Virus record (IMG/VR): IMGVR_UViG_3300030090_004264
Coordinates: 1-41,870 of that record
Length of the DNA stretch: 41,870 bases
Source: a virus
Reading direction: 5' to 3' (one strand)
Below the pieces are notes generated by a model, which did no database searches, was not told where the DNA came from, and saw only the letters and a list, made by a program, of their open reading frames with translations. Both the position numbers and the translations under genes were made by a program. Below are positions 19,286 to 21,417 of this stretch, one piece after another (positions within the stretch are counted from its first letter, which is position 1; the number at the start of each line of letters is the position of its first letter).

Positions 19286-19689
19286 TTTCCGGCCTCGCCA
19301 ATCCACGCCTCACAACACCATACCCCAATCTACCGCAATCGTAACCCAACGAACCACAACTCGCCACACCTGCCAAAATAAGCCTCTCCTCGCCATCTAC
19401 ATCCACTGCTCACCTGAACGCACCTCACCCCGCCCGCCTTACCTAACCCGTCCGGATCATAACAAACCTGGGCATACCTGGCCTGCCATAAAAATACCAC
19501 TCCTGAACTAAGCTCACCTCAACGTAACTCACCTAACCTCGCCTGCCTTGACACAACTTGCTACCACCAGAACGTACCCGACCTCACCACGCCTGCCGCA
19601 ACAAAACCGACCATACCTCGCTCAAACTTACCACGCCTGCCTCAACGCTCCACAACGCACCTTACCCCGCAATACCTGACCGTACCTGC
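19286..19689. repeat. Degenerate pentanucleotide repeat array (NACCN plus / NNGGT minus), about 400 bp
   Basis: The 400 bases between the 74-aa and 47-aa genes have no gene. The plus strand is nearly free of runs of G and consists of 5-base units of the type N-A-C-C-N with frequent NAACN and NGCCN variants; at 19515-19529 three successive units are CACCT, CAACG, TAACT. The phase holds for long stretches with occasional one-base slips. On the leftward transcript it reads as GGU triplets spaced by two bases. It begins at the 74-aa stop codon and ends just before the ribosome site of the 47-aa gene. Confidence 0.8.
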
Positions 19690-19914
19690 CTAAACAGGTT
19701 CCGGGTCGTCATGCTCTAAATCATCAACGGTAGCGAGCACGTCCTCTATCTGTAATATAATAGAACCCATCTCATCTACATCGTCTTTAGTTACATGACG
19801 TATCCCTTTAGATCTAGTGGCATTGTTCATAGCTATCAAAGCGTCTTCAAGTAAGCCGTAAAGTTCTCTGACTTCATCTACCCACTCTTGATAAAACACA
19901 TCACTACTTGCCAT
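19690..19914 (-). CDS. 74-aa acidic protein, unknown
   Basis: AAGGAGA stands 8 bases before the ATG. Helical and acidic: FYQEWVDEVRELYGLLEDAL, TKDDVDEMGSIILQIEDVLA, ending DLEHDDPEPV. Starts directly after the 30-aa gene stop and ends where the pentanucleotide array begins. No domain recognised; an early host-directed protein is plausible from operon position. Confidence 0.65.
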   Translation of the reverse strand: MASSDVFYQEWVDEVRELYGLLEDALIAMNNATRSKGIRHVTKDDVDEMGSIILQIEDVLATVDDLEHDDPEPV

Positions 19915-20026: not shown

Positions 20027-20052
20027 GCGGTGCTGCTAAACAACAGCACCGC
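20027..20052 (-). other. GC-rich hairpin between early genes
   Basis: A perfect 9-bp stem (GCGGTGCTG with CAGCACCGC) with an 8-base loop lies between the 169-aa stop and the ribosome site of the 30-aa gene. No U run follows, so it is not a normal terminator; it may stabilise or process the early mRNA. Confidence 0.5.
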
Positions 20053-20069
20053 TGCATCGAGTATGCCTG

Positions 20070-20579
20070 TTACGCTGCATACTTATCGATGATGCGTTGA
20101 GCCTCAGAGAAAAACTTATGAAGTTCTTGTAGTTCTCCATATTTCTTCCTCCATGTGTTCAAATCTCTAGCAGCCTGTTCCAATATCTGCCTTCGATAAT
20201 CCTCATTGTCCAACGCTATATCCAGTGGAACGTAACTGCGCTCGGCGTTGTCGTCATCACCGTCTGACGTAGTTACTTTTACACTATGAAAAGCACGAAC
20301 CGGTTCGTCTACATGCTGCGTGACGACCATGACTGAACCGATTAGCATCCTAGCTTCGTGCAATCGATGCTTCTCCGCAGCTGAAGCATCATCCCACGTG
20401 AAGCACGAGTGAAGTGGCGAACTCTTTCTTTCTGCCGCCTTCACAACTACATGTGGATTGAGGGTCCCGTGCTTATTAGATATCGCTTCAAGTTCTTCTC
20501 CAACAACTTGAGCGTCCACTGAATATTTTGTTTTACCGTTGTTCCTAAATTCATAGGACTGTATTATTCTTCTACGCAA
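20070..20579 (-). CDS. 169-aa protein paired with the 208-aa gene, unknown
   Basis: Alpha/beta N-terminal half (NGKTKYSVDAQVVGEELEAI, LNPHVVVKAAERKSSPLHSC) and a helical C-terminal half (RRQILEQAARDLNTWRKKYG, ELQELHKFFSEAQRI) that looks like a coiled-coil tail. It overlaps the 208-aa gene by 8 bases. I recall similar two-gene pairs in phage replication or early regions, without a role. Could form a complex with its partner. Confidence 0.6.
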   Translation of the reverse strand: MRRRIIQSYEFRNNGKTKYSVDAQVVGEELEAISNKHGTLNPHVVVKAAERKSSPLHSCFTWDDASAAEKHRLHEARMLIGSVMVVTQHVDEPVRAFHSVKVTTSDGDDDNAERSYVPLDIALDNEDYRRQILEQAARDLNTWRKKYGELQELHKFFSEAQRIIDKYAA

Positions 20580-21198
20580 CTTTAACCTCCTTCTTTCTTT
20601 CGATCTTTGTTACGTTGGTTACTTTAAACATACCAAAGTTACCATTCTTTTGCGGTCTCCATTCTCCGACACCAGATGCAAACCCCGCTACATTAAACAC
20701 GTTGATCAACTGTTCAATTGACCAGGCATTAGCATTGTATCGAACAGGAACGTCTGCCTGCCATTCTGTAAACTCACCTCTATATCTGAGGTCAGCTGCA
20801 CCCATACCAACACGCACCATGTCTTCTCTCATCACAGGCTTACCTTGAATCTTAATTAAGTCACATGGAATGTGGAATGATCCACGAGCTGAGACTTTTG
20901 TAAGACCCTCAATGTGAGAGCAAGCGTTAACAGCTGCTGCCTTAAACGCAATAGCAGGGAAGCCATAGTCTTTACCGTTCGGCATCTGATATAAAGAATC
21001 TCTAAAACATTTTTCAGGATCCTTTGCTTCTCTACCAGCAGCTTTAGCTATCTTCATCTGCTTATCTCTTATTTCTTGTTTAGCCTTCTCAGACCATTTG
21101 TTACATATCAAAGGTGAGTCACCTTTTAATGTTATAATACAGTCCTGTAATACTACGCCTGGGACTGTGATGTTATCAGGCTCTTTTTTCTTGGTCAT
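20572..21198 (-). CDS. 208-aa conserved phage protein, possible RAMP-like fold
   Basis: Recurrent family features: LKGDSPLICNKWSEKAKQEI near the N-terminus, AKDPEKCFRDSLY, YGFPAIAFKAAAVNAC, then VSARGSFHIPC, MRYRG-like DLRYRGEFTEW and the end GVGEWRPQKNGNFGMFKV. The G-x-G-E-x-R-P-x-K..G-x-F end loosely resembles Cas7/RAMP-type folds, but this is an impression, not a match. It overlaps the upstream RHH gene by 23 bases. Early expression is implied by the promoter at 21.5 kb. No catalytic residues seen. Confidence 0.65.
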   Translation of the reverse strand: MTKKKEPDNITVPGVVLQDCIITLKGDSPLICNKWSEKAKQEIRDKQMKIAKAAGREAKDPEKCFRDSLYQMPNGKDYGFPAIAFKAAAVNACSHIEGLTKVSARGSFHIPCDLIKIQGKPVMREDMVRVGMGAADLRYRGEFTEWQADVPVRYNANAWSIEQLINVFNVAGFASGVGEWRPQKNGNFGMFKVTNVTKIERKKEVKVA

Positions 21199-21352
21199 TT
21201 TTATTACCTCTTATTCTTTCTTCTGATTCTTTATCAACCAGATATTCTATGAAACCAGCAACAGATCTGTAATCTCGATCGGCCATGGTCTTTAGTTTTT
21301 TGTAGCTTTCTTTCTTGATAGCCACAGACTTATATCTTGATACATCTGTCAT
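21176..21352 (-). CDS. Ribbon-helix-helix-like regulator (58 aa)
   Basis: I chose the ATG at 21352 because it overlaps the stop of a 21-codon gene as TAATG; the product then begins MTDVSRYKSVAIKKESYKKL and continues KTMADRDYRSVAGFIEYLVD. A basic strand (SRYKSVAIK), then two short helices with a turn (MADRDYRSVAGFIE) is the Arc/CopG pattern. It could repress its own operon, or act at the palindromes near 17.0-17.1 kb; both are inferred. A longer in-frame start exists at 21397 but would overlap the upstream small genes. Confidence 0.6.
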   Translation of the reverse strand: MTDVSRYKSVAIKKESYKKLKTMADRDYRSVAGFIEYLVDKESEERIRGNKNDQEKRA

Positions 21353-21417
21353 TACACCCACCCTAAGTGATGAACGAGCATAATGGCTATAATGCATCCT
21401 ATGATTATACTAATCAT
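21352..21417 (-). CDS. 21-aa transmembrane microprotein
   Basis: The ATG overlaps the upstream stop as ATGA and the stop overlaps the next ATG as TAATG, so this tiny frame is locked between two coupled genes. The product, MISIIIGCIIAIMLVHHLGW plus a final Val, is a single hydrophobic helix. It resembles other short phage or toxin membrane peptides in nature only. Whether it is biologically expressed can only be inferred from the coupling and from the strong promoter upstream. Confidence 0.5.
   Translation of the reverse strand: MISIIIGCIIAIMLVHHLGWV

What the first reader, a model, noticed from the sequence alone, without database searches (positions are those of the whole stretch)
19286..19689. 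A 400-bp degenerate 5-nucleotide repeat array of NNGGT units
Between two small early genes the plus strand is a long chain of pentamers of the form NACCN (minus strand NNGGT), with NAACN and NGCCN variants. The 5-nt phase can be followed for long stretches with few one-base slips; about 80 units would fill the interval. It is non-coding in every sensible way, because a 5-nt period rotates the codon frame. The minus strand is the transcribed one, so the RNA would present GGU triplets spaced by 2 nt, an arrangement like the (G/U)AG arrays bound by TRAP, or a sponge for a G-rich-motif protein. At DNA level, 5-nt steps put sites on both helix faces and could nucleate a filament or G-rich two-tier quadruplexes. 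I do not know this element from described phages.
Basis: partly seen in the sequence, partly recalled or inferred. Interest (0 to 1): 0.88.

Follow-up and report, generated by a model that had tools for sequence, protein, structure and literature searches.

The report
Phage RNA-guide array (VIPR system)
The odd 5-base repeat in this marine virus is a bank of RNA guides for VIPR, a CRISPR-like system described only in 2026, and one guide can be read letter by letter as a stretch of another gene (a HIT-family enzyme).

Summary
Window 19288-19689 is a 5-nt periodic, G-rich (minus strand) non-coding array of about 82 units, consensus NNG(G/T)(Y/A). A nearby gene (20572-21198, P0002) is a RAMP/Cas7-fold protein matching the solved SUSP1 Vipr protein (E 4e-14; hhalign 98.8%). 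The next gene (20070-20579) is a conserved partner, a likely vap. The array is therefore a guide (vrRNA) array of a VIPR system (bioRxiv 2026.04.26.720920), not a TRAP-like sponge or a quadruplex.

New here: the array holds 7 guide cassettes of 8-15 NN dinucleotides with no 3' tails. They are separated only by a 4-nt junction, GGC-A-GGC. The same grammar occurs in dozens of viral contigs and in four isolated phages found through the protein. Cassettes are shuffled between related phages, and NN positions change less than the last two connector bases. Decoding guide 5 (19436-19480) with the published 1-nt skip rule spells H-I-H-L-I-P-R-Y-K, the HIT-enzyme motif. Both exact viral hits and 78 of 80 genome hits read are in frame at that motif, with the skipped base at the wobble position. 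Targets of the other guides are uncertain. Expression, processing and the natural target are untested.

The parts
19288..19689 (-). VIPR guide (vrRNA) array: about 82 NNG(G/T)Y units in 7 cassettes
   Evidence: Period-5 autocorrelation and HMM; parse and coordinates
19639..19683 (-). Guide cassette 1: AC CA AT GG AA GC GT GC GA
   Evidence: Parse; shared with relatives
19595..19634 (-). Guide cassette 2: GT AA TG GA AT CG TT GC; NN string present in arrays of 12 related contigs
   Evidence: viral scan gives no convincing target
19545..19590 (-). Guide cassette 3: GT GA CG AC CT GG AA GT AA, reads V[DE]RTLG[KN]V[KN]; candidate target SPFH/Band_7 gene
   Evidence: one full 18/18 match, L241
19485..19540 (-). 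Guide cassette 4: GA TA GA AC GA GA TA CA GT AT AT
   Evidence: target unresolved
19436..19480 (-). Guide cassette 5: CA AT CA TT AT CC CG TA AA, reads HIHLIPRYK, the HIT-family motif
   Evidence: Exact matches in two viral HIT genes and 78 of 80 genome loci
19372..19431 (-). Guide cassette 6: GG GA GC CA GA ... GA GA TT TT
   Evidence: Parse; target unknown
19292..19367 (-). Guide cassette 7 (longest, 15 NN): GT GA GT TC GG AC GC AG GG AT GT GA GT TT GA
   Evidence: Parse; scan of its 3' half inconclusive
20572..21198 (-). vipr: RAMP/Cas7-fold protein, 208 aa (phrog_4652)
   Evidence: PDB 36pp E 4e-14; hhalign to SUSP1 Vipr 98.8% E 1e-16; AlphaFold pLDDT 91, Foldseek to Csm3 E 6e-6
20070..20579 (-). 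Candidate vap (accessory protein), 169 aa (phrog_15946)
   Evidence: Family found in most array loci together with vipr; pLDDT 89 model without significant PDB match
19690..19914 (-). Small 74-aa gene; its TAG stop is the first unit of the array
   Evidence: homologue near the array in 22 other loci

Best explanation
The array is the guide-RNA part of a VIPR (Viral Interference Programmable Repeat) system carried by a marine tailed phage. It would be transcribed on the minus strand, probably with the neighbouring genes (inferred). Vipr subunits, which have a CRISPR-RAMP fold, would line up along each cassette, perhaps one per pentamer, holding the G(G/T)Y triplets and exposing the NN pairs (inferred from the published SUSP1 system). 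The NN pairs read with a one-base skip match a DNA target (shown here for guide 5 by sequence: a HIT-family gene). Binding then represses or blocks that gene in a competing phage or other mobile element (inferred from the preprint). The GGC-A-GGC junctions separate one guide from the next (inferred from their regular placement and from cassette shuffling).
For: Vipr homology by profile, PDB sequence and fold. Array in the vipr neighbourhood and on the same strand in 85 of 86 array/locus pairs; the one exception has no G skew. Four isolated phages found through the protein alone all carry an array beside vipr with the same junctions. Between related phages, substitutions at N1 N2 are 6.0% and 2.9%, against 13.1% and 11.0% at the second G and the Y. 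Guide 5 decoded by the published rule gives 2 of 2 viral hits and 78 of 80 genome hits in frame in the HIT motif, skip at wobble. Published mechanism: PMC13142463.
Against: No transcription or binding data for this phage. The first G of the connector is as conserved as the NN (3.3%), so the substitution test separates only two of three connector positions; its 110 pairs are not independent. 63 guides gave no excess of matches over shuffled guides in the first 2 Mb of loci, and most cassettes have no convincing target. Connectors are looser here (GTT, GCC, GGA, GAT) than GGY. The candidate vap is not related to SUSP1 vap1.
Confidence: 0.92

Rival explanations
1. A VIPR array whose targets are host (cellular) genes rather than rival phages, so the phage reprograms its host.
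For: The HIT motif matched by guide 5 is common in bacterial genomes (more than 120 stretches), and SPFH/Band_7, the candidate target of guide 3, is also a cellular family.
Against: Exact matches occur in viral contigs, L220 (with UvsX-like, gp32-like and helicase genes) and a 360-kb contig L221. The preprint finds that most decoded targets in the two clades studied are mobile elements.
Confidence: 0.25
2. A TRAP-like or CsrA-like RNA sponge or attenuator in which the GGU triplets are the binding code.
For: TRAP targets also have 5-nt spacing (own knowledge), and the RNA does carry regularly spaced G(G/U)U triplets.
Against: Two of three connector bases vary more than the N bases between orthologous cassettes; the linked protein is a RAMP; guide 5 spells a protein motif.
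Confidence: 0.03
3. A DNA-level element (R-loop or G-quadruplex former, origin, filament nucleation site).
For: Strong G skew of the transcribed-sense strand.
Against: Coupled to the vipr/vap pair across unrelated phages with very different GC and in either gene order; NN conservation and decoding need a sequence-reading function.
Confidence: 0.02

Closest known systems
VIPR system of Escherichia phage SUSP1 (type II; PMC13142463, PDB 36pp)
   Same: RAMP-fold Vipr, adjacent small second gene, GGY/NN tandem-repeat RNA on the same strand, 1-nt skip reading of targets.
   Different: SUSP1 has separate ~100-nt vrRNAs with a conserved 3' tail. Here the guides are fused end to end with only a 4-nt GGC-A-GGC junction, no tail, looser connectors and an unrelated accessory protein.
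[quoted passage not shown] S18 of the same preprint)
   Same: Possibly the same architecture as the contiguous array here.
Class 1 CRISPR arrays with Cas7/Csm3 RAMPs
   Same: RAMP fold, RNA guide, periodic interruption of pairing.
   Different: No direct repeats with long spacers, no cas genes recognised beside it, non-contiguous 2-of-3 target reading.
TRAP (GAG/UAG)n RNA sites
   Same: 5-nt spacing of a conserved triplet.
   Different: Triplet is GGU/GUU; the information is between the triplets; the partner is a RAMP.

Membership tests
VIPR system | Vipr protein: single RRM-type RAMP with G-rich loop | tested here: met
   conserved GVGEWRP...G-F loop in the 43-sequence alignment
VIPR system | Tandem RNA of alternating GGY/NN motifs next to vipr, same strand | tested here: met
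   connector relaxed to G(G/T)(Y/A), 8-15 units per guide
VIPR system | 1-nt skip decoding finds real targets, skip at codon wobble | tested here: met
   Guide 5 only. Other guides inconclusive
VIPR system | Accessory vap gene beside vipr | tested here: met
   Conserved second gene family in most loci; function not tested
VIPR system | RNA is expressed and co-purifies with Vipr; RNP binds double-stranded DNA | not testable with these tools
   Needs experiment
VIPR type II (SUSP1 clade) | Separate vrRNAs with conserved structured 3' tail, and vap1 | tested here: not met
   No tail between cassettes; vap unrelated to SUSP1 vap1, hhalign probability 0.1%
CRISPR array | Near-identical direct repeats separated by unique spacers | tested here: not met
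   Tandem Repeats Finder gives only one short low-score row inside the array
TRAP binding site | (G/U)AG triplets every 5 nt | tested here: not met
   Consensus triplet is GGT/GTT
Described Rfam RNA families | Match above gathering score | tested here: not met
   0 matches in the window

The most novel reading that the evidence does not exclude
This is a separate VIPR array type, widespread in phages: a contiguous, tail-less guide bank with a 4-nt GGC-A-GGC register break. Phages gain, lose and reorder cassettes by recombination, and in some relatives a tRNA-Cys placed directly before the array could free its 5' end.
Probability: 0.35. Interest if true: 0.7.

Novelty: new member of a known kind. 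Interest (0 to 1): 0.62.

Why it matters
VIPR is so new that independent evidence is scarce. This locus was noticed from raw sequence alone, and it leads to the same protein and the same code. It adds a large group of environmental phages, isolated mycobacteriophage, Gordonia phage and cyanophage relatives that can be tested in the laboratory, a junction grammar that lets guides be cut out of contiguous arrays by computer, and a guide that spells a known enzyme motif. With that grammar, natural targets of phage-phage conflict can be decoded from metagenomes at scale.

Tried and rejected
RNA structure of the array: no better than shuffles. Rfam: nothing. polA relatives at about 60% identity (L002, L009, L006): no array at that place; the weak L009 period-5 score is AT-rich sequence. 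Nucleotide searches against isolated phages: no match. Scanning 63 guides in the first 2 Mb of loci under 0-3 nt skips: no excess over shuffled guides. Scans for guides 2, 3, 4 and 7: hit numbers are near what I estimate for chance (about 10 for 16 fixed bases, below 1 for 18; the collection size is inferred from these same scans). The in-frame hits for guides 2, 4 and 7 (ANRISQFT..., EYDTDDYH..., GIVDVLD...) are not claimed as targets. Guide 3 to SPFH genes is a lead only (two SPFH hits of seven, one 18/18). A later scan of whole candidate records looks enriched over shuffled guides, but those records were chosen because they matched, so it is circular. The GGC-AGGC junction count over pattern-recruited loci is biased by the recruiting pattern; the unbiased support is the four isolated phages. 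Vap fold: no significant PDB match. Promoter scan: not above shuffles.

Full report
Observation. The interval 19286-19689 has clear 5-nt periodicity: z = 5.3, 6.6, 5.0 and 5.5 at lags 5, 10, 15 and 20 against dinucleotide shuffles, and a cyclic HMM strongly prefers period 5. Read on the minus strand the unit is N N G (G/T) (T/C/A), about 82 units. It begins inside the TAG stop codon of the 74-aa gene 19690-19914 and ends at the ribosome-binding site of the next minus-strand gene. It has no unusual folding energy, no Rfam match and no detectable promoter or terminator of its own above chance.

The slips are signal. Most of the 4-nt units are preceded by GGC and read AGGC or AGGT, giving the junction GGC-A-GGC. 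In the window these junctions start at 19687, 19638, 19594, 19544, 19484, 19435 (here GGGC) and 19371 and divide the array into seven cassettes of 8 to 15 units.

Relatives. A motif-free period-5 score found such arrays in 95 of the 220 sources then held, about 170-1770 nt long and in genomes of very different GC. The vipr-family gene P0002 (20572-21198) and its neighbour P0003 recur with these arrays: 80 ORFs in the P0002 family and 77 in the P0003 family. Array and P0002 are on the same strand in 85 of 86 cases; the exception, in L120, lacks G skew and is probably something else. Loci without P0002 are mostly cut at a contig end; L113 is the clearest exception. Gene order is P0002-array-P0003 or P0002-P0003-array, with a few other orders.

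Identity. The P0002 alignment (A1) matches PDB 36pp, 'SUSP1 Vipr protein', at E 4e-14 and SUSP1 Vipr by hhalign at 98.8% and E 1e-16. The AlphaFold model (pLDDT 91) matches Csm3-type RAMPs of type III CRISPR complexes. The one paper found is a preprint (PMC13142463). It describes VIPR: a RAMP protein, an accessory Vap, and vrRNAs of alternating GGY/NN whose NN pairs are read with a one-base skip on the DNA target. In the two clades studied most decoded targets are mobile elements. Its supplement was not available to me.

Comparison. I fetched the SUSP1 locus and parsed it with the same HMM: guides of about 13 units, each followed by a constant tail. Our array has no tails. P0003 is not related to SUSP1 vap1 and has no significant structural match, so calling it a vap rests on its constant company with vipr. 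Searching isolated phages with P0002 alone found mycobacteriophages, Gordonia phages and cyanophage Cy-LDV1. The four I opened (Saal, Ecliptus, Pipp, Cy-LDV1) all have an array beside the vipr homologue with the same GGC-A-GGC junctions, which shows the grammar without the bias of the recruiting pattern.

Cassettes behave as guides. In contigs close to the window the same cassettes recur in different order and combination. Between orthologous cassettes the NN positions change less (6.0%, 2.9%) than the second G (13.1%) and the Y (11.0%); the first G is at 3.3%. The pairs are not independent, so I treat this as supporting evidence only.

Decoding. Guide 5 (19436-19480) has NN = CA AT CA TT AT CC CG TA AA. 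With one skipped base this is CANATNCANTTNATNCCNCGNTANAA, in codons [HQ][IM][HQ][FL][IM]-P-R-Y-[KN]. In viral contigs there are exactly two matches, both in frame in HIT-domain genes (Pfam E 1e-22 and 1e-21) at HIHLIPRYK. Of the 80 loci returned, 78 are in frame at the HIT motif. So the guide spells the HIT motif with the skipped base at the wobble position, as the preprint reports for other VIPRs. Which HIT gene is the natural target is not settled. The viral carriers are L220, a 6-kb contig with UvsX-like, helicase-like and gp32-like genes (by my reading of the ORFs; UvsX), and a 360-kb contig (L221).

Other guides. Guide 3 reads V[DE]RTLG[KN]V[KN] and has one full 18/18 match, in an SPFH/Band_7 gene, plus a second SPFH-like gene among seven 16-base hits: a lead. 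Guides 2, 4 and 7 gave hit numbers near the chance level I estimate and are unresolved.

Mechanism, with status. Shown by sequence: array, vipr homology and fold, linkage, junctions, cassette turnover, HIT decoding. Inferred from the published system: RNA expression, Vipr assembly on each cassette, DNA binding, repression of rivals. Not known: whether the contiguous RNA is cut at the junctions, what the accessory protein does, and whether the fig. S18 'staggered' arrays are this type.

Verdict. A new member of the newly described VIPR kind, possibly of an array type not yet detailed, with one guide decoded.

Noticed in passing
L202:11511-11584, L205:3299-3372, L208:3092-3165, L161:1615-1688, L211:11753-11824: In several close relatives a tRNA-Cys(GCA) gene ends directly at the start of the array; tRNA processing could free the 5' end of the guide RNA.
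   Followed up: partly
L113:11334-11612: A solitary regular guide of 13 units between two GGCAGG junctions, with no vipr homologue found in 11 kb on one side or 1.7 kb on the other: possibly an orphan guide.
   Followed up: no
L273, L274, L275, L276: Mycobacteriophage Saal gp51, Gordonia phage Ecliptus gp19, Gordonia phage Pipp gp42 and cyanophage Cy-LDV1 g34, all annotated hypothetical, are Vipr homologues with arrays beside them; they are laboratory-testable.
   Followed up: partly
window 20027-20060: Inverted repeat (GCGGTGCTG...CAGCACCGC) just after the candidate vap gene, not followed by a T run on the minus strand; possible processing or stability hairpin.
   Followed up: no
window 21176-21397: Small ribbon-helix-helix (Arc/CopG-like, weak match) gene overlapping the start of vipr; possible regulator of the locus.
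   Followed up: no
L127:2486-3860: Two vipr-family genes in tandem before a 1.8-kb array in a 73% GC locus.
   Followed up: no
L002:7620-7760 and L009:6850-6970: A similar non-coding stretch (AGAGTTGGGATAGAGG...GGTTCGGG.CCTC) shared by two polA relatives of this phage; function unknown.
   Followed up: no
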